This document shows positions 8,528-56,692 of a DNA stretch of 64,000 nucleotides, piece after piece. The DNA comes from Kineococcus rhizosphaerae (GTDB taxonomy: Bacteria; Actinomycetota; Actinomycetes; Actinomycetales; Kineococcaceae), in assembly GCF_003002055.1 (NCBI RefSeq), contig NZ_PVZF01000001.1, positions 186,001-250,000 on the forward strand. The letters are read 5' to 3'. The notes beneath the pieces are model-generated. The model worked only from the letters and a program-made list of their open reading frames with translations. It did no database searches and had not been told where the DNA came from. The number at the start of each line of letters is the position of its first letter. Within the stretch, counting starts at the first letter, position 1. The translations under genes and the position numbers were made by a program.

Positions 8528-9009
8528 GCGGGGACGGAAGCCCGGAGATCACCGTCGACGGCAGCGGGCTGCGGGTCGCGGTCGTCGCGGCGCGCTGGCA
8601 CGCCGAGGTCATGGAGGGCCTGCTGGCCGGCGCGCGCCGCGCCCTGGAGGCCTCCGGCGTCACCGACGTCACCGAGGTGCGCGTGCCGGGCGCCTTCGAG
8701 CTGCCCGTGGCCGCGGCCCGGCTGGCCCGCGCCGGCTACGACGCGGTCGTCACCCTGGGCGTCGTGATCCGCGGCGGCACACCGCACTTCGAGTACGTGT
8801 GCGACGCCGCGACGTCCGGCCTGACCCAGGTGGCGGTCACCACGGGCGTGCCCATCGGGTTCGGCGTGCTCACCGTCGACAACGAGGCCCAGGCGCTGCA
8901 CCGGGCCGGGTTGCGCGGTTCGCGCGAGGACAAGGGCGCCGAGGCCGTGGAGGCGGCGCTGGAGACGGTCGTCGCCCTGCGCGGCGTCGCGCCCCTGCCG
9001 ACGTCCTGA
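8524..9009 (+). CDS. ribH: 6,7-dimethyl-8-ribityllumazine synthase
   Basis: Lumazine synthase condenses the RibB product with 5-amino-6-ribitylaminouracil; the enzyme forms large icosahedral or pentameric assemblies. The 161-residue protein shows [46 protein letters not shown] and [16 protein letters not shown]. It is the last gene of the ribE-ribB-ribH operon, with 4-base overlaps throughout, and is followed by a long perfect hairpin. RibD and GTP cyclohydrolase II must be encoded elsewhere. Confidence 0.95.
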
Positions 9010-37330: not shown

Positions 37331-37364
37331 GGAGCGCCCGGCCGGCCCGCGGCGTGGGCGCTGG

Positions 37365-37386
37365 TGTCGCAGGGGCTGACTACCCT
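37365..37386 (+). promoter_or_regulatory. RecA-NDp/PafBC-type promoter of polA
   Basis: TGTCGCAG (37365-37372), 8 bases, then TACCCT (37381-37386), with the polA GTG 7 bases later. This matches the known TTGTCRGTG-N8-TANNNT architecture except for the first T and some inner positions. The same layout occurs before uvrB, uvrA and uvrC. Confidence 0.55.
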
Positions 37387-37393
37387 GGCCGAC

Positions 37394-40186
37394 GTGACAC
37401 CGCCCGCTGTACGCAAAGCAGCCGCCACGAAGAAGACCGCTGCCAGGGGCGGCTCCGCCGCCCGGCCCGCGCCGACGCGGCCCCGGTTGCTGCTGATCGA
37501 CGGGCACTCCATGGCCTACCGCGCGTTCTTCGCGCTGCCGGTCGGCAACTTCGCCACCACCACCGGCCAGCCCACCAACGCCGTGTACGGCTTCACGTCG
37601 ATGCTCATCAACCTGCTGCGCGACGAGGACCCCACCCACTTCGCCGTCACCTTCGACGTCTCGCGGCACTCGTTCCGCACCGACGAGTACCCCGAGTACA
37701 AGGGCACCCGGACCAAGAGCCCCGACGAGTTCCGCGGCCAGGTCGAGCTCGTCAAGGAGGTCCTCGCCGCCCTGCGCGTGCCCGTGGTCGAGAAGGAGGG
37801 CTACGAGGCCGACGACGTCATCGCCACCCTCACCACCCAGGCCGTCGAGCAGGACTTCGACGTGCTCGTCTGCACCGGCGACCGCGACGCCCTGCAGCTC
37901 GTGCGCCCCGAGGTCACCGTCCTGTACCCCGTCAAGGGGGTCTCGGAGCTGGCCCGCATGACGCCCGAGGCCGTGGAGGAGAAGTACGGCGTCCCGCCCC
38001 AGCGCTACCCCGACCTCGCCGCCCTCGTCGGGGAGACCTCCGACAACCTGCCCGGTGTCCCCGGCGTCGGCGCCAAGACCGCGGCCAAGTGGATCGGCCT
38101 GTACGACGGTCTCGACGGCGTCATCGGCAACGCCGACCTCGTCAAGGGCAAGGCGGGGGAGAGCCTGCGCGCCCACCTCGACTCCGTCATCCGCAACCGC
38201 CGCCTCAACGCCCTCGTCACCGACCTCAGCCTCGGGGTGACCGTCCCCGAGCTGGTCCGGCGCGCCTGGGACCGCGAACAGGTCCACACCGTCTTCGACG
38301 GCCTGGAGTTCCGCGTCCTGCGCGACCGCCTGTTCGCCACCCTGGAGTCCGCCGAACCCGAGGCCGAGGAGGGCTTCGGCGTCGACGGCGCCGTCCTGCT
38401 CGCCGGAGAGGTCGCTGCGTGGCTCACCGACCACGCCACCGGGGCCACCGGCCTGCACGTGCAGGGCGAGTGGGGCCGCGGCACGGGGGAGGTCACGGGC
38501 CTGGCGCTCGCGGGCGGCGACGGCGTCGCCGCGTGGATCGACCCGGTGACCCTCGAGGCGGCCGACGAGCAGGCCCTGGCCGCCTGGCTGGCCGACCCGG
38601 ACCGGCCCAAGGTCGCGCACGACGTCAAGGGCCCCTCGCACGCCCTGCGCGCCCGCGGCTGGGAGCTGGCCGGGGTCACCTTCGACACCGCCCTGGCCGC
38701 CTACCTGTGCCGGCCCGACCAGCGCAGCTACGACCTGGCCGACCTCGCCGTGCGCCACCTCAAGCGCGAGCTGCGCGCCGAGGGGTCCCTGCCGCAGGCC
38801 CCCGCCGACGAGCAGCTGACCCTCGACGGCGGCGACGGTCCCGTGGGCGGGGACCTGCAGGCGCGCGCGGAGGAGGGCATGGTCCGGGCGCTGGCGATCT
38901 CCGAGCTGGCCGCGGTCCTGGCCACCGAGCTCGACGAGCGCGGCGGGACGCGGCTGCTGGCCGAGGTCGAGCTGCCGCTGGTGGACGTCCTGGCCCGCCA
39001 GGAACGGGTCGGCGTCGCCGTCGACCCCGAGCTGCTGGCCGACCTCGAGGCGCACTTCGCCGACCGCGTCGCCCAGGCGCAGACCCTCGCCTACGAGGTC
39101 ATCGGGACCGAGATCAACCTGGGCTCGCCCAAGCAGCTGCAGACCGTGCTGTTCGAGCAGCTGCAGATGCCCAAGACCAAGCGCACCAAGACCGGGTGGA
39201 CGACCGACGCCGACGCCCTCGCGGCCCTGTTCGTCAAGACCGAGCACCCCTTCCTGGCCCACCTGCTCGAGCACCGCGACGCCTCGCGGCTGCGGCAGAC
39301 GGTCGAGGGGCTGCGCAAGTCCGTGGCCGACGACGGCCGCATCCACACGACGTACCAGCAGATGATCGCGGCGACCGGGCGCCTGAGCTCGACCGACCCG
39401 AACCTGCAGAACATCCCCATCCGCACCGAGGAGGGGCGCCGCATCCGGCAGGCCTTCGTCGTCGGGCCGGACGGGGCCGGGGGCGGGTTCGAGTGCCTGC
39501 TGACGGCCGACTACTCGCAGATCGAGATGCGGATCATGGCGCACCTGTCGGGCGACGAGGGCCTCATCGCGGCCTTCACCTCGGGGGAGGACCTGCACCG
39601 CTTCGTCGGCAGCCGCGTCTTCGGGGTCGCCCCGGCCGAGGTGACGTCCGAGATGCGCGCCAAGATCAAGGCGATGTCCTACGGCCTGGCGTACGGGCTG
39701 TCCGCGTTCGGCCTGTCGAACCAGCTGAAGATCTCCACCGAGGAGGCCAGGGGCCTCATGGACGACTACTTCGAGCGGTTCGGCGGCGTGCGCGACTACC
39801 TGTACGGCGTCGTCGACGAGGCCCGCCGGGTGGGCTGGACCGAGACCATCCTGGGGCGGCGGCGCTACCTGCCGGACCTGGCCAGCGACAACCGGCAGCG
39901 CCGGGAGATGGCCGAGCGCATGGCGCTGAACGCCCCCATCCAGGGCTCGGCCGCCGACATCATCAAGGTGGCCATGCTCGACCTCGACGCCGGGCTGCGC
40001 GCCAGCGGGCTGCGCTCGCGGCTGCTGCTGCAGGTGCACGACGAGCTCGTCCTCGAGGTGGCCGCCGGCGAGCGCGAGGAGCTCGAGGCGCTCGTGCGCT
40101 CGACCATGGGCGGGGCCGCCTCGCTGGCGGTGCCGCTGGAGGTGTCGGTGGGCGTCGGGCGCAGCTGGCACGAAGCGGGGCACTGA
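37394..40186 (+). CDS. polA: DNA polymerase I
   Basis: PolI fills repair gaps and removes RNA primers. The 930-residue protein has an intact 5'-nuclease domain (LLLIDGHSMAYRAFFALP onward, EGYEADDVIATL, CTGDRDALQLV). The central 3'-5' exonuclease domain lacks the DxE motif (LHVQGEW at that place), as usual in actinobacteria. The polymerase domain is complete with TADYSQIEMRIMAHLSGD, the O-helix AKIKAMSYGLAYGLSAFG and VHDELVLEV. I prefer GTG 37394 over 37364 because the earlier codon lies in the promoter. Confidence 0.95.
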   Translation: MTPPAVRKAAATKKTAARGGSAARPAPTRPRLLLIDGHSMAYRAFFALPVGNFATTTGQPTNAVYGFTSMLINLLRDEDPTHFAVTFDVSRHSFRTDEYPEYKGTRTKSPDEFRGQVELVKEVLAALRVPVVEKEGYEADDVIATLTTQAVEQDFDVLVCTGDRDALQLVRPEVTVLYPVKGVSELARMTPEAVEEKYGVPPQRYPDLAALVGETSDNLPGVPGVGAKTAAKWIGLYDGLDGVIGNADLVKGKAGESLRAHLDSVIRNRRLNALVTDLSLGVTVPELVRRAWDREQVHTVFDGLEFRVLRDRLFATLESAEPEAEEGFGVDGAVLLAGEVAAWLTDHATGATGLHVQGEWGRGTGEVTGLALAGGDGVAAWIDPVTLEAADEQALAAWLADPDRPKVAHDVKGPSHALRARGWELAGVTFDTALAAYLCRPDQRSYDLADLAVRHLKRELRAEGSLPQAPADEQLTLDGGDGPVGGDLQARAEEGMVRALAISELAAVLATELDERGGTRLLAEVELPLVDVLARQERVGVAVDPELLADLEAHFADRVAQAQTLAYEVIGTEINLGSPKQLQTVLFEQLQMPKTKRTKTGWTTDADALAALFVKTEHPFLAHLLEHRDASRLRQTVEGLRKSVADDGRIHTTYQQMIAATGRLSSTDPNLQNIPIRTEEGRRIRQAFVVGPDGAGGGFECLLTADYSQIEMRIMAHLSGDEGLIAAFTSGEDLHRFVGSRVFGVAPAEVTSEMRAKIKAMSYGLAYGLSAFGLSNQLKISTEEARGLMDDYFERFGGVRDYLYGVVDEARRVGWTETILGRRRYLPDLASDNRQRREMAERMALNAPIQGSAADIIKVAMLDLDAGLRASGLRSRLLLQVHDELVLEVAAGEREELEALVRSTMGGAASLAVPLEVSVGVGRSWHEAGH

Positions 40187-40218
40187 CCGACCGCCGGTGG
40201 TGCCGGCCGCTCCGTCGC

Positions 40219-41034
40219 TCAGGGGCGGTCGGCGACCAGCACGAGCGTGCCGGGCAGCAGCTCCCCGCGCAGGCGGCTCCAGCCGCCCCACTCGGCGTCC
40301 CCGGAGCGCCACGCGGGTTCGACGAGGTCGCGCACCACGAACCCCGCGGCCACCAGCAGCCGGACCCAGTCGCCGACCGTGCGGTGGTGCTCGGCGTAGG
40401 TCACGGTGCCGTGCTCGTCGGCCTCCACGTAGGCGCGGCGGTCGAAGTAGGAGTGGGTCGCTCTGAGCCCCTCGGGGCCGGGGACGTCGGGGAAGGCCCA
40501 GCGCACCGGGTGCGGGACGCTGGCCGCGAACCGGCCCCCGGGCCGCAGGACGCGGGCCGCCTCGGCGAGGACGCGGTCGGCGTCGGCGACGAAGGGCAGG
40601 GCGCCGTAGGAGGTGAAGACGACGTCGAAGCTCGCGTCGGCGAAGGGCAGGACGCGGGCGTCGCACTGCGCCAGCGGGACCCCGGCGGCCCGGGCCGGTG
40701 CCAGTCCCTCGCGCAGCATGCCGAGCGACAGGTCGGTCGCCACGACGCGCGCGCCGCGGCCGGCGACCCAGCGGGCGCACTGGGCGGCGCCGGCGCCGAC
40801 CTCCAGGACGGTGGCGCCGTCGAGGTCGCCGAGCAGCACGGCCTCGGCCTCCCGCAGCCCGTCCGGCCCCCAGACGAGGTCGGACCCGGTGCGGTCGTCG
40901 CCGAGGAAGGCGCCGTGCTCGCGGCGGTACTGCGCCGCCTCGGCGTCCCACCAGCTCCTTTGCGCCGCAACGGTTTCAGCGGCACTCACGCCGCGGCGAC
41001 CGACGGTGGGCTGGGGTTGCGCGAAGTCCTCCAC
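40219..41034 (-). CDS. Class I SAM-dependent methyltransferase
   Basis: A 271-residue Rossmann methyltransferase. Motif I is VLEVGAGAAQCARWVA, motif II includes VVATDLSLGMLREG, and the post-II acidic CDARVLPFADASFDVVF is followed by LRPGGRFAASVPHPVRWAF. This last stretch and SYFDRRAYVEADEHGTVTY resemble actinobacterial methyltransferases of unknown substrate. GTG 40989 (VSAAETVAAQRSWW) is an alternative start that removes 15 residues. It is convergent with polA and divergent from rpsA. Confidence 0.82.
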   Translation of the reverse strand: MEDFAQPQPTVGRRGVSAAETVAAQRSWWDAEAAQYRREHGAFLGDDRTGSDLVWGPDGLREAEAVLLGDLDGATVLEVGAGAAQCARWVAGRGARVVATDLSLGMLREGLAPARAAGVPLAQCDARVLPFADASFDVVFTSYGALPFVADADRVLAEAARVLRPGGRFAASVPHPVRWAFPDVPGPEGLRATHSYFDRRAYVEADEHGTVTYAEHHRTVGDWVRLLVAAGFVVRDLVEPAWRSGDAEWGGWSRLRGELLPGTLVLVADRP

Positions 41035-41065
41035 GGCCCGATCCTGTCAGTCCGGCCGGGCCGCT

Positions 41066-41094
41066 TTGCCCCCTCCTGCCCCCGCCGGTAGGCT
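41066..41094 (+). promoter_or_regulatory. Predicted rpsA promoter
   Basis: TTGCCC (41066-41071) and TAGGCT (41089-41094) are spaced by 17 bases, giving a leader of about 120 bases before the rpsA ATG. Confidence 0.5.
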
Positions 41095-41223
41095 TGGCAG
41101 GCGCGCGTCTGCCCGTTGCCCACGGGGATCGTCCGAGAACCGGCTCAGCAGGTGGTCTCGCGTGACGGCCGGGAACCCCCGCCCGTGACACCCACGATTG
41201 TCCTTGACGGAGCCCCTACCTCC

Positions 41224-42732
41224 ATGACGACCACCACGACCGCGCCGGCGGGCACCACTCCTCAGATCGCGATCAACGACATCGGATCGGCTGAGGACTT
41301 CCTTGCCGCGGTCGACGCGACCATCAAGTACTTCAACGACGGTGACATCGTCTCCGGCACCATCGTGAAGGTCGACCGTGACGAGGTCCTCCTCGACATC
41401 GGTTACAAGACCGAGGGCGTCATCCCCTCGCGCGAGCTCTCGATCAAGCACGACGTCGACCCCAACGAGGTCGTCGGCGTCGGCGACGAGGTCGAGGCCC
41501 TGGTCCTCCAGAAGGAGGACAAGGAAGGCCGTCTGATCCTGTCCAAGAAGCGCGCCCAGTACGAGCGCGCCTGGGGCACCATCGAGGCCAAGAAGGAAGC
41601 CGACGAGGTCGTCGAGGGCACCGTCATCGAGGTCGTCAAGGGTGGGCTCATCCTGGACATCGGCCTCCGCGGCTTCTTGCCCGCGTCGCTGGTCGAGATG
41701 CGTCGCGTCCGCGACCTGCAGCCTTACGTCGGCAAGACGATCGAAGCCAAGATCATCGAGCTGGACAAGAACCGCAACAACGTGGTCCTGTCCCGCCGCG
41801 CCTGGCTCGAGCAGACCCAGTCCGAGGTCCGCCAGAACTTCCTCACGACCCTGCAGAAGGGTCAGGTCCGCTCCGGCGTCGTCTCCTCGATCGTCAACTT
41901 CGGTGCGTTCGTCGACCTCGGCGGCGTCGACGGCCTGGTCCACGTCTCCGAGCTGTCCTGGAAGCACATCGACCACCCCTCCGAGGTCGTCGAGGTCGGT
42001 CAGGAGGTCACCGTCGAGGTCCTCGACGTCGACATGGACCGCGAGCGCGTCTCGCTGTCGCTCAAGGCGACGCAGGAAGACCCGTGGCAGCAGTTCGCCC
42101 GCACCCACGCGATCGGTCAGGTCGTGCCGGGCAAGGTCACCAAGCTCGTCCCGTTCGGTGCGTTCGTGCGCGTCGACGACGGCATCGAGGGCCTGGTCCA
42201 CATCTCCGAGCTGGCCGAGCGCCACGTCGAGGTGCCGGAGCAGGTCGTCCAGGTCAACAGCGACATCTTCGTCAAGGTCATCGACATCGACCTCGAGCGT
42301 CGCCGCATCTCCCTGTCGCTGAAGCAGGCCGACGAGTCCCTCGCCGCGGCCGGCGAGGAGTTCGACCCCTCGCTGTACGGCATGGCGGCCGACTACGACG
42401 AGCAGGGGAACTACAAGTACCCCGAGGGCTTCGACCCCGAGACCAACGACTGGCTCGAGGGCTTCGAGGCGCAGCGCGAGGAGTGGGAGGGCCAGTACGC
42501 CCTTGCGCACGAGCGCTGGGAGCAGCACAAGAAGCAGGTCGCCGACCGCGCCGAGGCCGAGGCGAAGGCCGAAGCCGAGGGCACCACGGCCACCTCGAGC
42601 AGCTCCAGCTCCTCGAGCAGCAGCTCCTCGGCTCCCTCGTCCTACACGTCGGAGGCTCCGGAGGCCGCGGGCACGCTCGCGTCCGACGAGGCCCTCGCCG
42701 CGCTGCGCGAGAAGCTGACCGGCGGGAACTGA
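41224..42732 (+). CDS. rpsA: 30S ribosomal protein S1
   Basis: S1 binds mRNA and helps it load on the ribosome. The 502-residue protein has four S1 RNA-binding repeats (FNDGDIVSGTIVKVDRDEVL; VVEGTVIEVVKGGLILDIG; VRSGVVSSIVNFGAFVDLGG; VVPGKVTKLVPFGAFVRVDD), typical for actinobacteria. The start ATG 41224 gives the conserved INDIGSAEDFLAAVDATIKY. The C-terminal tail holds 12 serines in a row coded by mixed AGC/TCC/TCG triplets, then an acidic end. Its T-rich codon use at third positions is higher than that of neighbours, consistent with high expression. Confidence 0.96.
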   Translation: MTTTTTAPAGTTPQIAINDIGSAEDFLAAVDATIKYFNDGDIVSGTIVKVDRDEVLLDIGYKTEGVIPSRELSIKHDVDPNEVVGVGDEVEALVLQKEDKEGRLILSKKRAQYERAWGTIEAKKEADEVVEGTVIEVVKGGLILDIGLRGFLPASLVEMRRVRDLQPYVGKTIEAKIIELDKNRNNVVLSRRAWLEQTQSEVRQNFLTTLQKGQVRSGVVSSIVNFGAFVDLGGVDGLVHVSELSWKHIDHPSEVVEVGQEVTVEVLDVDMDRERVSLSLKATQEDPWQQFARTHAIGQVVPGKVTKLVPFGAFVRVDDGIEGLVHISELAERHVEVPEQVVQVNSDIFVKVIDIDLERRRISLSLKQADESLAAAGEEFDPSLYGMAADYDEQGNYKYPEGFDPETNDWLEGFEAQREEWEGQYALAHERWEQHKKQVADRAEAEAKAEAEGTTATSSSSSSSSSSSSAPSSYTSEAPEAAGTLASDEALAALREKLTGGN

Positions 42733-42760
42733 GTCCCCCGCTGATCGGCTGACGATCCGA

Positions 42761-42795
42761 CGAAGGCCCCGACCGGGTTCCGGTCGGGGCCTTCG
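42761..42795 (+). terminator. Terminator after rpsA
   Basis: CGAAGGCCCCGACCGG pairs perfectly over 16 bases with 42780-42795 around GTT. Confidence 0.88.
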
Positions 42796-42807
42796 TGCGT
42801 CCGGGAG

Positions 42808-42813
42808 TAGGTT
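42808..42813 (+). promoter_or_regulatory. -10 box of coaE, leaderless type
   Basis: TAGGTT ends 6 bases before the coaE GTG. Confidence 0.5.
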
Positions 42814-42819
42814 CGGCCC

Positions 42820-43704
42820 GTGCTGCGCGTGGGGCTGACCGGTGGGATCGGGGCGGGCAAGTCGACGGTGGCCCGGCTGCTGGCCGGGCACGGCGCGGTG
42901 CTCGTCGACGCCGACGTCATCGCGCGCGAGGTCGTGGCCCGCGGCACGCCGGGTCTGGCTGCGGTCGTGGAGGAGTTCGGGCCGGACGTCCTGACGGCGG
43001 CCGGCGACCTCGACCGCCCGGCGCTGGGCCGTCGCGTCTTCGGCGACGAGCGGCAGCGGGCGGCGCTCAACGCGATCGTGCACCCGCTGGTCGCCGCGCG
43101 CCGGGCCGAGCTGGCCGCCGCGGCCCCGGCCGGGTCCGTCGTGGTCGAGGACGTGCCCCTGCTCGTCGAGACCGGGGCCGCACCGGGCTACCCGCTGGTC
43201 GTGGTCGTGGACGCCGACGCGGCCGAACGGGTGCGCCGGCTGGTGACCGAACGCGGCATGAGCGAGGACGACGCCCTGGCCCGCCTGCGCGCGCAGGCCA
43301 CCGACGACGAGCGGCGCGCCGCCGCGGACGTGCTGCTGGCGAACCCGCGGCGGGCCGAGGACCGCCCCGACCCGCTGCCCGGGCTGGTCTCGGCCCTGTG
43401 GAGCGGACGGCTCCTGCCCTTCGAGGCCGCCGTCCGCGCCGGACGGCCGGCTCCCGCGCGGCCGGGTGTCCCGCCCGCCGACGCCGTCGAGCGCGCGCGC
43501 CGGCGCGTCGCCCACGCCACGGCCGGGCCGGTCGAGGTGGTCGACGCCTCGGCGTGGCCGGTGCGGCTGCGCGCGTCCGCCGAGGGCGCACTGACGACGG
43601 TCGGCTACGTCGACGCAGGTCAGGGCCGGTTCGCGAGCGCCGACCCGGGCGCCCCGGTCGCCGTCGAGCTCGTGCGGGAGGCTCGTGTCGGAGGTCCCGC
43701 CTAG
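42820..43704 (+). CDS. coaE: Dephospho-CoA kinase with C-terminal extension
   Basis: CoaE phosphorylates dephospho-CoA, the last step of coenzyme A synthesis. The kinase part (about residues 1-200) has Walker A GGIGAGKS, then [19 protein letters not shown], and [20 protein letters not shown] with the lid [19 protein letters not shown]. About 90 more residues follow, beginning [20 protein letters not shown], of no known function. Some actinobacteria carry a longer GrpB-like domain here; this tail is shorter and I do not recognise it. Its 3' end overlaps the uvrB promoter. Confidence 0.93.
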
Positions 43705-43707
43705 GCT
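43686..43707 (+). promoter_or_regulatory. RecA-NDp/PafBC-type promoter of uvrB
   Basis: TGTCGGAG (43686-43693), 8 bases, TAGGCT (43702-43707), then 7 bases to the uvrB ATG. It lies inside the last codons of coaE. It agrees with the uvrA site at 20 of 23 positions when the preceding G is included. Confidence 0.65.
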
Positions 43708-43714
43708 GCGACCC

Positions 43715-45862
<2,148 letters not shown>

Positions 45863-45904
45863 CCGGCCGCACCCGTTCCGGCGGACGGGCCGGTGCCCGC
45901 CTGC

Positions 45905-45958
45905 GGGGCGCCGCCGCGCCGGCCGTCCCCTCCCGGCCGGCCGGCGCGGCGGCGCCCC
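45905..45958. terminator. Terminator between uvrB and the MarR gene
   Basis: GGGGCGCCGCCGCGCCGGCC (45905-45924) pairs perfectly with 45939-45958. It lies between convergent genes. Confidence 0.8.
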
Positions 45959-45980
45959 CGCGTCGCCCCTCGGGGTGGGC

Positions 45981-46568
45981 TCAGCGCTGGTCGAGGCGGG
46001 CGAGGACGTCCTGGACGCCGGGGACGGGCGGGACGCTGCCCGTGGCGGTCAGGTGCTGCAGCAGGGTCGTGCTGATGGAGCGCAGCTGGTCCACCTGCTC
46101 GGGGCTGAGCTGGTCGAACAGCGCGTCCCGGACGGTCTCGACGTGACCGGGGGCGGCGGCCGCGAGGGCCTCGTGGCCGGCGTCGGTCAGGACGGCGATG
46201 AACCCGCGGCCGTCGGTGGGGCAGGACTGCCGGCGCACCCAGCCGCGTTCCTCCATGCGGGCCACGGCGTGCGAGACGCGGCTGCGCGAGGACAGCGAGG
46301 ACTCGGCCAGCTCGCTCATGCGCAGCGAGCGCTCGGGGGCCTCGGACAGGCGCACGAGCATCTCGTAGTACGTCAGCACGATCCCGGAGTCGTGCTGCAG
46401 CTGACGGTCGAAGCGGTCCAGCAGCAGCTGCACCGTCGACAGGAAGGTCCGCCAGGTGGCCTGCTCGGCCTCGTCGAGCCAGCGGACCGGCGCGGCCCCG
46501 GGAGGGGGGTCGGACGCGGCAGCGGGGTCGACGGAATCGTGCTCGAGAGTCGATGCGGATGGAACCAT
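45981..46568 (-). CDS. MarR-family transcriptional regulator
   Basis: A 195-residue winged-helix regulator. The DNA-binding region is [20 protein letters not shown] followed by the wing [20 protein letters not shown]. Helices at both ends form the dimer interface ([39 protein letters not shown]). MarR proteins usually repress neighbouring genes and respond to small ligands; no obvious target lies next to it except uvrA, divergent, 176 bases away. A short repeat ATGCA-n9-TGCAT (46567-46585) overlaps its start and might be an operator. Confidence 0.87.
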
Positions 46569-46715
46569 GCACAGAGCGTATGCATCGCGTTCAACTACCG
46601 TCGTCCCCCGAACGGTGGACGATGGCCCCGCCGTCCTGCGGGTGCGTCCCGGCGCGCTCCCCGACCTGCGTCGGACCGTCCCCGGACCAGCCCCGGGCGG
46701 GCGTCTGGAGGCCGG

Positions 46716-46737
46716 TGTCGGAGGTGGCGCCTAGGGT
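46716..46737 (+). promoter_or_regulatory. RecA-NDp/PafBC-type promoter of uvrA
   Basis: TGTCGGAG (46716-46723), 8 bases, TAGGGT (46732-46737), then 7 bases to the uvrA GTG. It has the same layout as the uvrB, uvrC and polA sites. Confidence 0.65.
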
Positions 46738-46744
46738 TGCCCCC

Positions 46745-49717
<2,973 letters not shown>

Positions 49718-49740
49718 CGACCAGGCGTTGCCCAGGTGGG

Positions 49741-49768
49741 GGATCGGGACTGCGAACGGTCCCGATCC
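49741..49768 (+). terminator. Terminator after uvrA
   Basis: GGATCGGGAC pairs with GTCCCGATCC around 8 bases, 24 bases after the uvrA stop. The rest of 49769-49954 shows no gene and no convincing promoter. Confidence 0.7.
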
Positions 49769-49954
49769 CTCACGGGCAGTAGCGGATCCCGGGGTGCGAC
49801 CCCGCACCGCGGGTGATGCGCGTGGAACCCTGCGTGGTATTCGTGCGGCGTTCGGTGAAGACCCTCCGGAGCGTGCCCGCGGACTGCCACACTCGGCGGC
49901 GATCACGACCCGGGACGGGGGAGACGCCCGGGTCGTCACCGACGAGGGAGACGC

Positions 49955-51223
49955 ATGAGCCAGACCGCGGAGCGCACGCACGGACACGCCGAGGGGCCCC
50001 GCACGCTGGGCACCGTCCCCCGGCCTCGCAGCAGCGAGGCGGTGCCCGCCCTGGCCGCCGCCCGGCGCGGCGTCCGCTGGCTGCAGGAGTCCGGCATCCA
50101 GAGCGCCACCGGTGGCTACCACTCCTGGTTCGACCGCACGCGCGGCGACTACCCCTTCGAGTACTCCGAGGTCACCGGCTACCAGGTCACCCTCGCCGCC
50201 TGGCTCGCCGCCCGCGAGGACCTCGCCCCCGCCGGTGACCCCCTGCTGCGCGAGGAGGTCCTCGCCGCCGCCGACCGCGCCGTCCGGTGGCTCACCACCG
50301 CCGTCCAGCCCGTCCCCGGCGCCTTCCGCTGCCTGGAGGCCTCCCGCACCGCCGGCGCGGTGGGCCGTTTCGCGGGCAAGGCCGAGCGGCTCTACACCTT
50401 CGACGCCGGGATCATCCTGCAGGGCCTGGTCGCCCACCACGTCGCCACCGGCAGCACCACGGCGCTGCGCACCGCGCTCGACACCGGCGAGTGGCTGCTG
50501 CGCCACGTCGACGCCACCGGCGTCGTCGCACCCTGGCCCGCCACCGCCGAGGCCGGCCGCTGGCAGGACGCGCCCGCCGACTGGTCCACCCGCCCCGGCG
50601 TGCACCACGCCAAGGTCGGCATCGGCCTGGCCGCCCTGGGCGAGGTGAGCGGCGACGAGCGCTTCACCCGCGCCGCCGTCGCGGTCTGCGAGAACGCCCT
50701 CGAGCTCCAGCTGCCCTCGGGCCGCTTCGTCACCAACCCCACCACCGCCGGCACCAACATCCACCCCCACAGCTACGCCGCGGAGGCGTTGTGGGCCGTC
50801 GGCACCGCCACCGGCCGCGACGACCTCGTCGCCGCCTCCGAACGCGCCGCCCTGTGGGCCCTGGCCGCCACCGACCGCGACGGGCTGCCGCCGCGCCGCT
50901 ACGCCCGCGCCGGCGACGGGACGGTCAGCGTCGTGCGCCACCCCCGCGTCGACGGCGTCGCCCAGGTCCTGCGCCTGGCCGCGCTGCACTCCGCCCACGG
51001 CACCCGCGCCGCCCAGCGCCTCGTGACGACCCTGTTGGACCGGCAGGTCCAGGCCCCCGACGAACCGCGCGCCGACGGCGGCTTCGCCTTCGGCGCCGGC
51101 ACCGACGGCACACCCCTGCCCCACGCCAACGTGTGGGTCACCGCCTTCGCCGTCCAGGCCCTCGTCCTGGCCGCCGGTGAGCGCCGCGGCACCGCGGTCC
51201 TCGACTGGCGCCACCTCGTCTGA
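49955..51223 (+). CDS. Alpha/alpha-toroid (terpenoid cyclase/prenyltransferase-like) protein
   Basis: A 422-residue soluble protein made of repeated helical hairpins, as in alpha/alpha toroid or six-hairpin folds. Repeating pieces include YSEVTGYQVTLAAWLA, RLYTFDAGIILQGLVAHHVA, GVHHAKVGIGLAALGEV, INPHSY-like NIHPHSYAAEALWAVG and ANVWVTAFAVQALVLA. The DxDD motif of class II terpene cyclases is not seen. Such proteins occur in polysaccharide clusters; the activity is unknown, possibly epimerase- or hydrolase-like. It precedes the glycosyltransferase by 14 bases, so they form an operon. Confidence 0.7.
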   Translation: MSQTAERTHGHAEGPRTLGTVPRPRSSEAVPALAAARRGVRWLQESGIQSATGGYHSWFDRTRGDYPFEYSEVTGYQVTLAAWLAAREDLAPAGDPLLREEVLAAADRAVRWLTTAVQPVPGAFRCLEASRTAGAVGRFAGKAERLYTFDAGIILQGLVAHHVATGSTTALRTALDTGEWLLRHVDATGVVAPWPATAEAGRWQDAPADWSTRPGVHHAKVGIGLAALGEVSGDERFTRAAVAVCENALELQLPSGRFVTNPTTAGTNIHPHSYAAEALWAVGTATGRDDLVAASERAALWALAATDRDGLPPRRYARAGDGTVSVVRHPRVDGVAQVLRLAALHSAHGTRAAQRLVTTLLDRQVQAPDEPRADGGFAFGAGTDGTPLPHANVWVTAFAVQALVLAAGERRGTAVLDWRHLV

Positions 51224-51237
51224 GGCGGACCGCACCC

Positions 51238-52557
51238 GTGGCCAGGATCCTGCTCCTCATGACCCGCCCGCTGGCCGGCGCCGGCGGTCGCGGACTGGTG
51301 CTGCGCACCATCGTCGACTCCCTCACCGGCAGCGGCCACGACGTGGTCTGCGCCGTCGTCGGCGGCCCGAGCCCCGCCGTCCCCGTCGACCGCTCGGTCG
51401 CCACCCACCGGCTGCCCGACGTCCGCTGGTGGGAGGTCGCCTCGCCCGCCGCCCGCCGGCGCGGGCTGCGCTCCCTCAACGAACGGCTCTACTGGTCTCC
51501 GCGGGTGGCCCGGCACGTGCGCCGACTCGTCGAGACCGAACGCATCGACGCCGTCGTGGCCGACGGGCTGCGGCTGGCGCCCTACGCCCAGGACTCCGGA
51601 CGTCCCTGGTTCGTCGACCTCGACGACCTGCTCTCCGACCGCTACGACCTGTGGCGCTCGCGGTCCATGGACCTGCACCAGCTCCTGGGGCACCGGCGGC
51701 CGTCCTCGGCCCTGGCCGGCGCCGTCCTGCGGCGCGTGCCGGTCGGGGCGCTGCTGGCGCGCGAGGCGCGCCGGCTGCGCGAGCGCGAGGAGGTCCTGGC
51801 GCGCACCGCGCACGGCACCTCACTCGTGTCCCCGATCGAGGCGGCCCGGCTGTCCGAGCGCGCGGGCGTCCCCGTGCAGGCGCTGCCCATGGCCGTCACG
51901 GCCGGCGTGCGCCGCACGTGGACCGGCGGGGCACCGCTGGACCGGCGGCTGGCCTTCCCCGGCTCGCTGACGGCCTACGCCAACGAGGAGGCCGTCCGCT
52001 GGTGGGTGGACGAGCTGGAACCGGCGCTGCGCGCCGCCGGGCTGACCGGGTGGGAGCTGCACGTCTACGGCGAGGTGCCGCCCTCGGTGCGGGCCCGCGT
52101 CAGCGCCCCCTCGGTCGTCCTGCGCGGCGCCTTCGACCGCGAGGCGCTGCACGCCGAGCTAGTGCAGCACTCGTTCCTGCTGGCTCCGCAGCGCGAGGCC
52201 CTGGGCCTGACGGTCAAGGTCGTCGAGGCCGCGGTGCTCGGTCTGGTCCCGCTGACGACCCCGCAGGGGGCCTCGGGGATGGCGGTGACCCACGGCGAGC
52301 AGGTGCTCCTCTTTCGCGACGGCCCGGAACTGGCCGAGGCGCTGTCCACCGTGGAGCGCTGGGCCGCCGAGGGCGGGCGGCAGACCGCCGCCCTGGCCGC
52401 CCGGGCCCGGGCGTGGGCCCGCGACAGCTTCGCCGCCGAGGTCCTGACCCGGCGCTGGGGCGCCGTGGTGCAGCAGCTGGTCCCCGGGGGCGCGCCGCGC
52501 CCCCGGACGCAGGTGGACGGCCCGGACGGGCTCGTGGGGGAGAGGACCCAGCGGTGA
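51238..52557 (+). CDS. Glycosyltransferase, GT4-like (GT-B fold)
   Basis: A 439-residue protein with the two-domain GT-B layout. The N-terminal domain starts ARILLLMTRPLAGAGGRGLV. The C-terminal domain has the sugar-nucleotide-binding pattern GLTVKVVEAAVLGLVPLTT and QGASGMAV, as in GT4 enzymes that transfer a sugar with retention. A cluster of W/R-rich residues (DVRWWEV; NERLYWSPRVARHVRRL) may mediate membrane association. The acceptor and donor are unknown. It overlaps the flavoprotein gene by 4 bases. Confidence 0.78.
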   Translation: MARILLLMTRPLAGAGGRGLVLRTIVDSLTGSGHDVVCAVVGGPSPAVPVDRSVATHRLPDVRWWEVASPAARRRGLRSLNERLYWSPRVARHVRRLVETERIDAVVADGLRLAPYAQDSGRPWFVDLDDLLSDRYDLWRSRSMDLHQLLGHRRPSSALAGAVLRRVPVGALLAREARRLREREEVLARTAHGTSLVSPIEAARLSERAGVPVQALPMAVTAGVRRTWTGGAPLDRRLAFPGSLTAYANEEAVRWWVDELEPALRAAGLTGWELHVYGEVPPSVRARVSAPSVVLRGAFDREALHAELVQHSFLLAPQREALGLTVKVVEAAVLGLVPLTTPQGASGMAVTHGEQVLLFRDGPELAEALSTVERWAAEGGRQTAALAARARAWARDSFAAEVLTRRWGAVVQQLVPGGAPRPRTQVDGPDGLVGERTQR

Positions 52558-53927
52558 GCACGGTGAGCGTGGACGACAGCCCGCGACGGGCCGAGGTGGA
52601 CGAGCCGGTCGTCGTGATCGGCGCCGGGCCGGCCGGCCTGGCCGCGGCTGAGCACCTGCTCGACGCCGGGCAGCAGGTCGTCGTGGTCGACGGCGCGCCC
52701 GGGGTCGGGGGCCTGAGCCGGTCCGTCGAGCTGTGGGGGCACCGCTTCGACCTGGGCCCGCACAGCTTCCTGTCGAACTCCCACCCGGAGTCGGTCACCC
52801 GGTGGCTGGACCTGGCCGGGGCCGCCGGCGGGATCGAGCGGACCGAGGCCGTCCGCTCCGCGGTGTGGCGCGGCCGCGTCGTGGGGTTCCCGCCCGGACC
52901 CGCCGACGTGCTGCGGACCGCAGGCCCGCGGCGCACCGCGCAGCTGGCCGCCTCCCGGGTCCGCTCTCGGGTGCGCCCCCGGGTGCGCCCCGATGCCCCG
53001 GCGGTCTCGGCGCACGACGCGCTCGTCGCCCGGCACGGCGCGGCCGTCGTCGAGGAGCTGTTCGTCCCCTACTGCCGCAAGTACCTCGGCGTGCACCCGG
53101 CGGAGCTGTCCCCGGCGTTCGCCGACAAGCTGCAGGGCACCCGCCGCGGCTGGCGCGGTCCGGTCGAGCTGCTCACCCCGCGCGAGGGCACCGGCGCCGT
53201 CTGGGACGAGCTGGCCCGCCGGCTGCGGGCGCGGGGGGCGCGGATCCTGCTCGGCACCGCGGTCGTCGGCCTGGCCACCGAGGGGGAGCTGGTCACCGGT
53301 GTCCGGGTCCGCGACGGGGCCGGGACGGCGACGCTGCCGGCGCGCGCGGTGGTCTCCAGCGTGCCGACCCCGGTCCTGCTGCGCTGGCTGCCGGGCACCA
53401 CCGCACCCGCCGGCCCGGTCCTGGGCTCGCGCGACACCTACCTCGTGCACCTGCTGCTGGAGGGCGCACCGGGCTCGGGCGCGGTCGGGCAGGACAGCCA
53501 CTACGTCACCGCCTACGACGAGGCCCTGCGGGTGGGCCGGCTGACCAACACCCGCGTCTGGCGGCCCCGGACGTTCGCCGCCGACCCCCGCACCGTCCTG
53601 TGCGCGGAGTTCTGGAGCTCCGGCGACGACGACCTGTCGGCCCGCGGCGACCGCGAGCTGGCCGAGCTCGCCGTCGCCGAGCTGTCCCGCTTCGGGGTCG
53701 ACCCGCGGGTGCGGGTCGTGGACCACGACGTCCTGCGGCTGCCGCGCAGCGTGCCCGTCCTGACCCGCGGCGTCGAGCAGGCCCGCGCCGCCGTCGACAC
53801 CCAGCTCGACCGGTTCGCCAACCTGGCTTGCGTGGGACGCCACGGCCGCCACGACTGGGACGGGCAGGAGGACGCCCTGCTGACCGGGCGCAGCATCGGC
53901 GCGCACGTGCTGGCCACCCGCGGCTGA
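52554..53927 (+). CDS. FAD-dependent amine oxidase/protoporphyrinogen oxidase-like protein
   Basis: A 457-residue flavoprotein with the dinucleotide motif [21 protein letters not shown] and the second glycine motif GGLSRSVELWGHRFDLGPHS. The rest, including FVPYCRKYLGVHPAELSPAF and the C-terminal GRHGRHDWDGQEDALLTG, follows the pattern of COG1232-type proteins found in polysaccharide clusters. Some of these are related to UDP-galactopyranose mutase. A haem role is unlikely from context. The start is GTG 52554 overlapping the glycosyltransferase stop; GTG 52563 is also possible. It is the last gene of the three-gene unit. Confidence 0.75.
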   Translation: MSTVSVDDSPRRAEVDEPVVVIGAGPAGLAAAEHLLDAGQQVVVVDGAPGVGGLSRSVELWGHRFDLGPHSFLSNSHPESVTRWLDLAGAAGGIERTEAVRSAVWRGRVVGFPPGPADVLRTAGPRRTAQLAASRVRSRVRPRVRPDAPAVSAHDALVARHGAAVVEELFVPYCRKYLGVHPAELSPAFADKLQGTRRGWRGPVELLTPREGTGAVWDELARRLRARGARILLGTAVVGLATEGELVTGVRVRDGAGTATLPARAVVSSVPTPVLLRWLPGTTAPAGPVLGSRDTYLVHLLLEGAPGSGAVGQDSHYVTAYDEALRVGRLTNTRVWRPRTFAADPRTVLCAEFWSSGDDDLSARGDRELAELAVAELSRFGVDPRVRVVDHDVLRLPRSVPVLTRGVEQARAAVDTQLDRFANLACVGRHGRHDWDGQEDALLTGRSIGAHVLATRG

Positions 53928-53939
53928 GCCCGGACGCAC

Positions 53940-53975
53940 CGACGCCGCCCCGGCTCCCGACCCGGTGCGGCGTCG
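53940..53975 (+). terminator. Probable terminator after the glycan cluster
   Basis: CGACGCCGC pairs with GCGGCGTCG over 9 bases around an 18-base loop. The remainder of 53976-54158 shows no gene. Confidence 0.55.
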
Positions 53976-54158
53976 CGGCGCCCGGTGGCGCAGCGCTGAG
54001 CGAGCCGCGTCACCCCGTCCGCACCGGGCCCTGGAACGGGTCGGGGCACAGGGCCCGTCCTGCCGATCGCGGGCAGCCGAGAGCAGGCCCGGACGGCGGG
54101 ATGAGCGGGCGATCGTGCTGAGCTGCCGCGGCGATCCCCGTTCTGCCAGGGTGATCGC

Positions 54159-54683
54159 GTGGCCGACACCGTCATCCTCGTCAACGGCCTGCCCGGTGCG
54201 GGCAAGACCACCTTGGCTCAGCAGCTGAAGGAGGCCTCCGGCTGGCCGCTGCTGTCGAAGGACGCGGTCAAGGAGGCGCTGGCGCTGATCGCCGACGGCG
54301 CCGTGGGCTCGGGCCGGTTGGGCGCGGTGGCGATGGACACGGTGTGGTCGATGGCGGCAGCCGTGGACGGTGAGGTGATCGTGGAGTCGTGGTGGTTCCG
54401 TCCACGCGATCTCGGCTTCGCCCGGGCGGGCGTGGCCCTCGCCGGGGCGGTGCGGGTGGTGGAGGTGTGGTGCGACGTCGCTCCGGCGGTGGCGCGGGAG
54501 CGCTACGCCGGACGTCACCGGGCGGCGGTGCACGACGACGGCGCGCGGCTGGCCACCGACTTCGACCGGTGGGTCGCCGAAGGGGTGCCGTTGGGGATCG
54601 GTTCGCTGGTGCGAGCGGACACCAGCGGACCGGTGGACGTCAACGGGCTGGTGGCCCGGGTGCGCGCGGCAGCGTCCGTCTGA
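54159..54683 (+). CDS. Small P-loop kinase-like protein
   Basis: A 174-residue P-loop protein with Walker A GLPGAGKTTLAQQL (residues 10-17 for the loop) and SWPLLSKDAVKEAL-like GWPLLSKDAVKEALALI, as in AAA/zeta-toxin-type or shikimate-kinase-like phosphotransferases. The conserved WWFRPRDL and VEVWCDVAPAVARERYAGRH follow the pattern of uncharacterised actinobacterial nucleotide kinases. The GTG start has a -10-like CAGGGT ending 6 bases before it. It stands alone, and its substrate is unknown. Confidence 0.72.
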   Translation: MADTVILVNGLPGAGKTTLAQQLKEASGWPLLSKDAVKEALALIADGAVGSGRLGAVAMDTVWSMAAAVDGEVIVESWWFRPRDLGFARAGVALAGAVRVVEVWCDVAPAVARERYAGRHRAAVHDDGARLATDFDRWVAEGVPLGIGSLVRADTSGPVDVNGLVARVRAAASV

Positions 54684-54733
54684 CGTCGTGGGAGCTGGCG
54701 CGCCACGCCCGCGCACCGCGGGACGACCGTGCG

Positions 54734-55195
54734 TCAGTGACGAGCGGGTCCGTCGATCCCTCGAGCGAGGTGCTCGGCGGCGTCGCGGGTCAGGCCGATC
54801 AGCGGGACCCGACGTCCGTCGGTGGTGCGCGCGGTGCTCTGGGCTTCGAACCGGCCCTGCACGTCGATGCGCGCGAGGTCTGCCCAGGGCACGAGTGGGC
54901 CGGGCACGAGCACCTTGCGCACCCGCAGTCCTTCGGCGCTGACCGACGTGGCGGGCGGGCGCCAGAACTGCATCAGCACGCCGAGGACCACGAAGGCCAC
55001 CAGCACGACGGCGGCGGCCCGGGCCGGCCAGGAGCCGGAGAGCAGCTGGGGGACGGCGGTGACGAGTGCGAGCACCTGAGCGGCGAGCACCGTCCAGCGC
55101 AGGGTGCCCGTGAAGGGGCGGGGGTACTCCTCGCGCAGGCCGGTCAGGTCGATCCCGGCGTCGTCCGGGGCGCGCGGCAGATCGTCGGAGCTCAC
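54734..55195 (-). CDS. Membrane protein with PH-like domain
   Basis: A 153-residue protein with two membrane segments (about residues 32-54 and 58-78) and a C-terminal PH-like stretch TSVSAEGLRVRKVLVPGPLV followed by PWADLARIDVQG. This is the same layout as the gene after hisG at 10263. I choose GTG 55195 (VSSDDLPRAPDD); a start at 55219 would add eight residues. The function is unknown. It is convergent with the kinase gene, and 125 bases separate its start from wecB, which lies upstream on the same strand. Confidence 0.7.
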   Translation of the reverse strand: MSSDDLPRAPDDAGIDLTGLREEYPRPFTGTLRWTVLAAQVLALVTAVPQLLSGSWPARAAAVVLVAFVVLGVLMQFWRPPATSVSAEGLRVRKVLVPGPLVPWADLARIDVQGRFEAQSTARTTDGRRVPLIGLTRDAAEHLARGIDGPARH

Positions 55196-55320
55196 TCCAG
55201 CAGCGTCTCCCCGCCGCACGCCGTGCGCTCACGATCGAGCGGTCTCGACCGTCGTCGGACACGCGCACCTCGGCGATGACCGGACGCGTCAGGCACCCGT
55301 CGTGATCCGCTGGACGGTCC

Positions 55321-56529
55321 TCAGAACGGGGCGACGAGCTTGACGATCGACTCCACGACGACGCGGCTGGCCGACCCGTCGCCGTAGGGGGAGGGCACCT
55401 CGCGCAGCGCCGCGGGGTCCTCGGCCAGCGCGGCGCGGACCGCGGCGCCCAGCCGCAGCCCGGCGGGCACCAGCGAGGCGAACGTCCCCACGACCTCCGG
55501 GCGCTCGGTGGAGCGGCGCACCACCACGAGCCGCTTCTTCAGGACCGAGACCTCCTCCTGGACACCGCCGGAGTCCGACACGACGATCCGGGCCCGGTTC
55601 AGCAGGGCCAGGAACTGCGCCGGCGGCTGCGGGGCGATGACCGTGAGGCGGTCCAGCAGGTCGCCCAGCCCTGCGCCGCGCAGCCGGTCCAGCGTGCGGG
55701 GGTGGGCGGGGAAGACGACCGGCAGGCCGTCGTCGACCAGGCCGACGACCTCGTTGAGGATCTGCCGCAGCACCGCCGGGTTGTCGGCGTTCTCCGGGCG
55801 GTGCACCGTCAGCAGCAGGTACCGCTCGGGCAGCCCCAGCGCGGCCAGCACCGCGTCCTGCCCGGCCTCGTCCGGCAGCAGGTGCAGCACGGACTCCACG
55901 ACCGTGTTGCCGGTGAGCAGGATCCGCTCGTCCGCGATCCCCTCGGCGCGCAGGTTCGCCACCGCCACCGGTGTCGGTGCGCAGCACAGGTCGGCGAGGT
56001 GGTCGATGAGCACCCGGTGGTGCTCCTCGGGCATCCGCCGGTCGAAGCTGCGCAGCCCGGCCTCCACGTGGACCAGGGGCACGCCGGCGGCGTTGGCGGC
56101 CAGCGCCCCCGCCAGCGCGGCCGTCGTGTCCCCCTGCACGAGCACGGCGCTGGGGCGGTGCCGGGCGAACGTCTCGTCCAGGCCCGCGACGGCCGCGCCG
56201 AGCTGCTGCCCGCGCGAGGTCCCCCCGACCCCCAGCGCCACGGCCGGCGGGCCGAACCCCAGCTGGGCCGTCACGTCCGCCCACAGGGCGGCGTCGTAGT
56301 GCTGACCGGTGTGCACCAGCAACCCGGCCGCCCCGAGCCGGCGCACGATCTCGGCGACCTTGATGGCCTCCGGGCGCGTGCCCACCACGACGGCCACGGG
56401 GCCGGGCGCCCCCTCGCCGACGGGGAAGCCCAGCGGCCGGCGCACCGTCTGCGGCGGCACCTGCGCGGCCGCGGAGGCGGCGGGCAGGGAGCCGGAGGGT
56501 CCGGGGGAGCTGAGCGTCGGCGTGGCCAC
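55321..56529 (-). CDS. wecB: UDP-N-acetylglucosamine 2-epimerase, non-hydrolysing
   Basis: WecB interconverts UDP-GlcNAc and UDP-ManNAc, a precursor of wall teichoic or capsular sugars. The 402-residue GT-B-like protein shows VVVGTRPEAIKVAEIVRRLG, VLVQGDTTAALAGALAA, VHVEAGLRSFDRRMPEEHHR, LLTGNTVVESVLH, LLLTVHRPENADN and VSDSGGVQEEVSVL with RRSTERPEVV. An N-terminal Ser/Ala/Pro-rich stretch of about 45 residues precedes the domain when GTG 56529 is used. No wecC-like dehydrogenase lies next to it. It is divergent from uvrC. Confidence 0.93.
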   Translation of the reverse strand: MATPTLSSPGPSGSLPAASAAAQVPPQTVRRPLGFPVGEGAPGPVAVVVGTRPEAIKVAEIVRRLGAAGLLVHTGQHYDAALWADVTAQLGFGPPAVALGVGGTSRGQQLGAAVAGLDETFARHRPSAVLVQGDTTAALAGALAANAAGVPLVHVEAGLRSFDRRMPEEHHRVLIDHLADLCCAPTPVAVANLRAEGIADERILLTGNTVVESVLHLLPDEAGQDAVLAALGLPERYLLLTVHRPENADNPAVLRQILNEVVGLVDDGLPVVFPAHPRTLDRLRGAGLGDLLDRLTVIAPQPPAQFLALLNRARIVVSDSGGVQEEVSVLKKRLVVVRRSTERPEVVGTFASLVPAGLRLGAAVRAALAEDPAALREVPSPYGDGSASRVVVESIVKLVAPF

Positions 56530-56670
56530 GCACGGGACGGTAGGGCCGCCGTTCCCCGCGGCGGGGCCCGTCGCACCCGGTCGGCGGGCAGCACCACACG
56601 ACTGCCGTCCTGGTGTCGCAGAACGTGGCCGGGCCAGCACGGCGGGTCGTGCGGCGGGGCGGCGGGCCCG

Positions 56671-56692
56671 TGTCCGGACCGCGACCTAACCT
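56671..56692 (+). promoter_or_regulatory. RecA-NDp/PafBC-type promoter of uvrC
   Basis: TGTCCGGA (56671-56678), 8 bases, TAACCT (56687-56692), then 7 bases to the uvrC GTG. This is the weakest of the four matches in the upstream element, but spacing is identical. Confidence 0.5.

What the first reader, a model, noticed from the sequence alone, without database searches (positions are those of the whole stretch)
37365..56692. polA, uvrB, uvrA and uvrC share a LexA-independent DNA-damage promoter layout
Each of the four genes has TGTC heading an 8-base element, then exactly 8 bases, then a TANNNT box, then exactly 7 bases to the start codon (elements at 37365, 43686, 46716 and 56671). The upstream elements are GTGTCGCAG, GTGTCGGAG, GTGTCGGAG and GTGTCCGGA when the preceding base is included. 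The architecture matches the published RecA-NDp/PafBC promoter (TTGTCRGTG-N8-TANNNT), with G replacing the first T in all four. The other leaderless promoters in the window (rpe, hisE, hisF, trpC, pyk, pdtaR, coaE) lack TGTC at that place, and most have 6 rather than 7 bases before the start. This suggests a coordinated excision-repair regulon including gap filling by PolI.
Basis: partly seen in the sequence, partly recalled or inferred. Interest (0 to 1): 0.75.

Follow-up and report, generated by a model that had tools for sequence, protein, structure and literature searches.

The report
PafBC-type promoters on excision-repair genes
In this unnamed actinobacterium the genes that cut out and refill damaged DNA share a promoter layout that in mycobacteria answers to the damage-sensing activator PafBC, which makes it a new, slightly altered example of a known alarm system and suggests that the system is spread wider than mycobacteria.

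Summary
TGTC-N12-TANNNT occurs 4 times in the window against 0.34 expected and 42 times in the genome against 7 reversed; wrong spacers average 9. Of the 42 sites 15 head repair, recombination or replication genes, recA among them, against 0 of 39 wrong-spacer sites judged by eye. pafA, pafB and pafC are present. The motif precedes polA in 25 of 30, uvrB in 25 of 30 and uvrC in 12 of 30 regions of the genome and its relatives, and across 246 genomes of the phylum enrichment goes with PafC. These are most likely PafBC (RecA-NDp) promoters, a known kind, in a lineage form GTGTCGGAG. Corrections: the 7-base gap is not diagnostic, uvrC's element departs from TGTCR, and the regulon is wider than excision repair. 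Testable extensions: polA as a conserved target, and the motif before Streptomyces uvr genes. Damage induction could not be tested.

The parts
37364..37372 (+). polA upstream (-26 type) element GTGTCGCAG
   Evidence: motif in 8 of 9 same-genus polA loci (own included) and 25 of 30 regions in all
37381..37386 (+). polA -10 box TACCCT, 7 bases before the start codon
37394..40186 (+). polA, DNA polymerase I (930 aa, GTG start)
   Evidence: Pfam DNA_pol_A 7.2e-146 and 5'-3' exonuclease domains
43685..43693 (+). uvrB upstream element GTGTCGGAG
   Evidence: motif in 11 of 11 same-genus loci (own included) and 25 of 30 regions in all
43702..43707 (+). uvrB -10 box TAGGCT, 7 bases before the start codon
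43715..45862 (+). uvrB (715 aa, ATG start)
   Evidence: NCBIfam UvrB equivalog over cut-off
46715..46723 (+). uvrA upstream element GTGTCGGAG
   Evidence: motif in 46 of 77 uvrA upstream regions of named loci; not examined in the window's own genus
46732..46737 (+). uvrA -10 box TAGGGT, 7 bases before the start codon
46745..49717 (+). uvrA (990 aa, GTG start)
   Evidence: NCBIfam UvrA equivalog over cut-off
56670..56678 (+). uvrC upstream element GTGTCCGGA, the most divergent of the four (C where the published core has A or G)
   Evidence: motif in 8 of 11 same-genus loci (own included) and 12 of 30 regions in all
56687..56692 (+). uvrC -10 box TAACCT, 7 bases before the start codon
56700..58709 (+). 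uvrC (669 aa, GTG start)
   Evidence: NCBIfam UvrC equivalog over cut-off

Best explanation
The four sites are PafBC-dependent (RecA-NDp) promoters. Shown here: the two-part site with a fixed 12-base distance between TGTC and TANNNT, its genome-wide enrichment at repair genes, its conservation, the presence of pafB and pafC, and the lack of a usual -35 hexamer at these four sites by inspection. Inferred from mycobacterial work: single-stranded DNA made by damage binds the WYL domains of PafBC; PafB's helix-turn-helix reads the TGTC element near -26 and PafC's binds SigA domain 4, so that the housekeeping polymerase starts at the TANNNT box without a -35 box. Also inferred: the start codon sits 7 bases after the box, so the mRNA starts at or next to the start codon (leaderless). 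The outcome would be joint induction of UvrABC incision and PolI refilling, with recA, ruvA, recO, recR, radA, mfd, pcrA, dnaE1 and dnaX, apart from LexA.
For: Exact layout and chance test. Genome: 42 vs 7 reversed; spacers 8-16 together give 114 matches, so spacer 12 has 42 and the other eight average 9. 15 of 42 sites head repair, recombination or replication genes, and a further one heads tlyA-nadK-recN, against 0 of 39 wrong-spacer sites judged by eye (Fisher 1.2e-5). PafA (E 6.4e-229), PafC helix-turn-helix (1.8e-42); PafB and PafC match the solved PafBC structures 6sj9 and 7p5x (E 2.4e-66 or better and 1e-59 or better). In upstream regions of the genome and its relatives, spacer 12 counts are 25 of 30 (polA), 25 of 30 (uvrB), 12 of 30 (uvrC), every other spacer from 6 to 18 at 0 or 1; in named loci 46 of 77 uvrA, 15 of 27 uvrB, 16 of 50 uvrC. 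Across the phylum, enrichment in 48 of 132 genomes with a strong PafC match against 4 of 114 others. Published: mechanism in passages of PMC11804915; UvrABC, RecA and RuvA in the M. smegmatis regulon in passages of PMC8223512; uvrB transcript down 37% in an M. smegmatis pafBC deletion in a passage of PMC5656591; M. tuberculosis core TGTCGG-N10-TANNNT in section 17 of PMC8151990.
Against: No expression, transcript-start or binding data. polA (TGTCGC) and uvrC (TGTCCG) do not match TGTCRG exactly. The motif is missing before uvrC in 18 of 30 regions and 34 of 50 named loci, and before uvrA in 31 of 77. 84 of 132 PafC-positive genomes show no significant enrichment (83 of them outside the class) and 4 genomes without a strong PafC do; relatedness was not corrected for, and the PafC family model also rings in well-known genomes such as E. 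coli. 27 of 42 sites head genes with no clear tie to repair, and some are probably chance.
Confidence: 0.86

Rival explanations
1. They are ordinary leaderless SigA promoters of this genome, constitutively active, and TGTC is incidental.
For: The TANNNT plus 5-8 bases plus start layout is common here: 9 other sites in the window and 14 of 39 wrong-spacer control sites have it.
Against: TGTC at exactly 12 bases is enriched, linked to repair genes and conserved at that distance only.
Confidence: 0.05
2. LexA/SOS control, with the TGTC element unrelated to regulation.
For: uvrA has a LexA ChIP peak in Streptomyces venezuelae (passages of PMC9380542); a lexA gene is present here.
Against: No CGAAC-N4-GTTCG-like site with up to 2 mismatches lies within 400 bases upstream of any of the four starts; the nearest before uvrC is at 56253. 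For comparison, one-mismatch sites lie upstream of recA (L022:1594) and of the LexA domain (L064:1275), and an exact one at L064:812; the totals in those loci are 3 against 2.9 expected and 6 against 2.4 (11 of 200 shuffles reach 6), so this comparison is weak.
Confidence: 0.03
3. Another regulator (ClgR, or one of the other WYL proteins) reads the same element, alone or with PafBC.
For: PMC5656591 cites a study in which ClgR recognises the M. smegmatis recA P1 region (passage); the genome has 10 WYL-domain matches, PafB and PafC among them.
Against: Motif enrichment goes with PafC across the phylum; the M. smegmatis PafBC motif closely resembles RecA-NDp (passage of PMC8223512). ClgR was not tested here.
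Confidence: 0.06

Closest known systems
RecA-NDp / PafBC promoters of mycobacteria (tTGTCRgtg-N8-TannnT)
   Same: TGTC, 8 bases after the 9-base element, TANNNT, no usual -35 box; the same target classes (UvrABC, RecA, RuvA are named for M. smegmatis in passages of PMC8223512)
   Different: Here the element is GTGTCGGAG-like: G for the weak first t (34 of 42 sites, by eye) and mostly A where the published form has t (10 of 15 repair sites). The four window sites lie directly before the start codon; how often that is so in mycobacteria was not checked, nor whether polA, recO, recR, mfd, dnaE1 and dnaX are targets there
RecA-NDp promoter of the Streptomyces macrodomain gene SCO6735 and of S. coelicolor recA (passages of PMC5087735)
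   Same: The same promoter type outside mycobacteria, before DNA-damage-related genes
   Different: Single genes in another lineage in the passages seen, not a genome-wide set
LexA/SOS regulon
   Same: Overlapping kinds of genes induced by damage
   Different: Repressor with a palindromic box, which was not found near the four starts

Membership tests
PafBC (RecA-NDp) promoter | TGTC element, 12 bases from TGTC to TANNNT | tested here: met
   4 of 4; spacer 12 stands out genome-wide and in other genomes
PafBC (RecA-NDp) promoter | TGTCR core (TGTCGG, TGTCAG or TGTCAC in M. tuberculosis, PMC8151990) | tested here: inconclusive
   TGTCR in 3 of 4; uvrB and uvrA TGTCGG, polA TGTCGC, uvrC TGTCCG. 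Same-genus sites with TGTCG: polA 7 of 8, uvrC 5 of 8
PafBC (RecA-NDp) promoter | no usual -35 hexamer | tested here: met
   by inspection no TTGAC-like hexamer 17 bases before the -10 box in the four upstream stretches printed
PafBC (RecA-NDp) promoter | genome encodes both PafB and PafC | tested here: met
   L062:6735-7760 and 7780-8751, downstream of pafA at L062:2620-3981
PafBC (RecA-NDp) promoter | sites enriched at DNA repair genes, recA included | tested here: met
   15 of 42 sites, recA among them
PafBC (RecA-NDp) promoter | transcription induced by damage through PafBC, transcript start just after TANNNT | not testable with these tools
   needs RNA-seq and a pafBC mutant
LexA/SOS operator | CGAAC-N4-GTTCG box near the promoter | tested here: not met
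   none within 400 bases upstream of the four starts with up to 2 mismatches; the box itself is recalled, not taken from a call

The most novel reading that the evidence does not exclude
PafBC is the ancestral, class-wide general DNA-damage regulator of Actinomycetes (and of some lineages outside the class), of which the mycobacterial regulon is one local version. Its old core joins nucleotide excision, PolI gap filling and fork repair on largely leaderless mRNAs, and reaches Streptomyces, where it has been left unproven, and uncharacterised operons such as SWIM-DUF5691-DUF5682.
Probability: 0.5. Interest if true: 0.62.

Novelty: new member of a known kind. Interest (0 to 1): 0.42.

Why it matters
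It turns a four-gene hunch into a specific regulon prediction outside mycobacteria and bears on a stated open question: a 2022 paper on Streptomyces venezuelae wrote that an initial search suggested the M. smegmatis PafBC motif is not conserved there and that a RecA/LexA-independent response remained to be shown (PMC9380542, passage). In the Streptomyces and Kitasatospora loci held here the motif precedes uvrA in 9 of 14 (a fifteenth was too short to scan), uvrB in 3 of 3 and uvrC in 6 of 7. It also points to polA as a conserved target, so that incision and refilling would be raised together.

Tried and rejected
Chance: rejected. The 7-base gap as a signature: rejected; among the 42 sites 14 have 6 and 11 have 7, wrong-spacer controls also have 5-8 (14 of 39), and uvrB of relatives uses both 6 and 7. 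G at the first place as a general rule: rejected for named loci, which have T, C, G and A. SOS control: not supported.

Weak points kept in view: the control sites were judged by eye only, and 39 were used of 60 wrong-spacer matches listed (72 counted); I fetched 40 and dropped one cut by a contig end. The hypergeometric figure rests on assumed totals (5000 genes, 100 of them repair or replication) and is not used as evidence. Many downstream proteins were scanned as pieces of at most about 500 residues, so several (mfd, pcrA, the GyrB-type protein, the ClpC-like one) score below the cut-off of their model. 40 of the 42 downstream genes went through a family library; of the other two, recA (L022) was placed by a genome search and L058 has no coding-like frame nearby. 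The phylum pattern TGTCRG would miss the polA and uvrC elements of the window. One search missed motifs where the protein match ran upstream of the true start; one search repeated the scan. Matches to polA were found in only 4 of the named loci, at 37-47% identity (0 of 4 with the motif); its conservation rests on unnamed relatives. The organism, its class and its phylum are not named by any search; Actinomycetota and Actinomycetes are inferred from the named UvrA relatives. ClgR was not tested.

Full report
What is there. Each of the four genes has the stated layout, base for base. TGTC-N12-TANNNT occurs 4 times in the window on both strands against a mean of 0.34 in shuffles, 0 of 100 reaching 4, and all four places are these promoters. 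Of 13 leaderless-type sites in the window the 9 others lack TGTC there; 7 have a 6-base gap and 2 a 7-base gap.

Genome-wide. The window lies in an unnamed 5.6-Mb genome of 63 contigs. The pattern with the 7-base gap and a start codon has 11 matches against 2 for the reversed pattern. The pattern without the start codon has 42 against 7. With the distance left free from 8 to 16 there are 114 matches against 99 reversed, so the eight wrong distances average 9 and distance 12 has 42. Genes after the 42 sites: recA, ruvA, polA, uvrB, uvrA, uvrC, a GyrB-type topoisomerase subunit, recO, a DEDD exonuclease with UvrC-like part, a DNA polymerase III alpha subunit (here called dnaE1), radA, dnaX, recR, mfd, pcrA: 15 of 42. 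A sixteenth site heads tlyA-nadK-recN. Others include clpC-like, ftsH, rimO, lipA, ispH, S-(hydroxymethyl)mycothiol dehydrogenase, an ADP-ribosylhydrolase, two SWIM-domain proteins, glyoxalase-like proteins, transporters and unknowns; 27 of 42 have no clear tie to repair if tlyA is counted with them. Among 39 sites with the wrong distance I saw no repair gene (by eye); 15 of 42 against 0 of 39 gives Fisher 1.2e-5.

The regulator. pafA lies at L062:2620-3981. Downstream are two adjacent WYL proteins; the second carries the PafC helix-turn-helix of Pfam (1.8e-42). The first matches a chain of 7p5x and of 9fnd and the first half of PafBC 6sj9 (E 2.4e-66 or better); the second matches PafC of 7p5x and the second half of 6sj9 (E 1e-59 or better). 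A LexA gene is present, but no SOS-like box with up to two mismatches lies within 400 bases upstream of the four starts. recA has a one-mismatch SOS-like site about 70 bases upstream of its TGTC site, which would fit the two-promoter arrangement of mycobacterial recA (PMC11804915, passage), though that locus has no more such sites than chance (3 against 2.9).

Conservation. In 80 loci around UvrA with named records, nearly all of them actinobacterial, the motif was found in 46 of 77 uvrA, 15 of 27 uvrB and 16 of 50 uvrC upstream regions, with every other distance from 6 to 18 at 0 or 1. In the window's own genome and unnamed relatives of its genus, family and order, it was found before polA in 25 of 30, uvrB in 25 of 30 and uvrC in 12 of 30 regions (30 loci each were cut, out of 36, 38 and 39 genomes with a match). 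In the same genus, own genome included: polA 8 of 9, uvrB 11 of 11, uvrC 8 of 11. A start codon 5-8 bases after the box is present at all 62 of these polA, uvrB and uvrC sites and at 14 of 15 uvrB and 16 of 16 uvrC sites of the named loci, but at only 11 of 46 uvrA sites there. The leaderless pattern with the 7-base gap is present in 38 of the 39 genomes searched, own included.

Across the phylum. In 246 genomes of the window's phylum, own included, TGTCRG-N10-TANNNT exceeds its reversed control (binomial p < 0.01) in 20 of the 21 genomes of the window's class (1154 matches against 204). Overall it does so in 48 of 132 genomes with a strong PafC match (E 1e-15 or less, my cut; the family model also rings in well-known genomes such as E. 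coli) and in 4 of 114 others (Fisher 4.5e-11, not corrected for relatedness). One family outside the class, f31, has 325 against 39 in 16 genomes, all with PafC. Against the simple picture, other PafC-bearing families (f25, f38, f45, f63) show no enrichment.

Mechanism. From published work on mycobacteria (passages of PMC11804915): single-stranded DNA activates PafBC; PafB's helix-turn-helix reads the -26 motif and PafC's binds SigA domain 4. I infer the same here from the regulator's presence and the promoter's anatomy. The element of this genome is GTGTCGGAG-like: first base G in 34 of 42 sites (by eye) and 14 of 15 repair sites, eighth base A in 10 of 15. The published consensus quoted in PMC5656591 (passage) writes the first t in lower case, and the M. 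tuberculosis form is TGTCGG-N10-TA-N3-T with variants (PMC8151990, section 17 read), so the G lies outside the core. The uvrC element (TGTCCGGA) is the weakest of the four, and uvrC is also the least conserved of the three targets compared.

Known or new. That UvrABC, RecA and RuvA belong to the PafBC regulon of M. smegmatis is in print (PMC8223512, passages), and that RecA-NDp promoters extend to other Actinobacteria is stated there too. Of the papers cited I saw search listings and passages, and one section of PMC8151990; the primary papers by Gamulin 2004, Mueller 2018 and Mueller 2021 were not read (the last is not held). polA as a PafBC target: the listing for PafBC with polA (18 papers, 10 listed) also counts other words that begin so. 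In six papers whose main text I searched for it, five have no hit and PMC8151990 has three, of which the passages shown read as the country name; I cannot say that it is unpublished. For Streptomyces, PMC9380542 (passages) says an initial search suggested that the motif is not conserved in S. venezuelae; here the Streptomyces and Kitasatospora loci have it before uvrA in 9 of 14, uvrB in 3 of 3 and uvrC in 6 of 7. S. venezuelae itself was not among them.

Verdict. A correct observation and, in the main, a correct interpretation: a new member of a known kind, with a lineage-specific motif form, a wider regulon than claimed, and two testable extensions (polA, Streptomyces).

Noticed in passing
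L030/L217 (G000:C4:29447-29478, - strand): GTGTCGGAG-N8-TAGAGT-N7-GTG, with the same upstream element as uvrB, uvrA and recA, heads a SWIM zinc-finger protein followed by DUF5691 and DUF5682 genes: an uncharacterised run of genes predicted to be damage-inducible.
   Followed up: partly
L040 (G000:C5:280748-280769, +): A second SWIM-domain protein (464 aa) heads another site with a 6-base gap.
   Followed up: no
L059 (G000:C17:21186-21207, +): An ADP-ribosylhydrolase-like gene has a site and, just after it, a near repeat of it; compare the RecA-NDp promoter of the Streptomyces macrodomain gene SCO6735 (PMC5087735, passages).
   Followed up: no
L215:3310-7144 (G000:C1): tlyA-nadK-recN run with a site, 7 bases before a 68-aa frame ahead of tlyA.
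   Followed up: partly
G000:C4:320345 and C4:322606 (L035, L036): dnaX and recR, sites 2.3 kb apart, each have their own site.
   Followed up: no
family f31 (same phylum, other class): 16 of 16 genomes bear PafC and together have 325 motif matches against 39 control, although outside the window's class: PafBC-type regulation may be older than the class.
   Followed up: no
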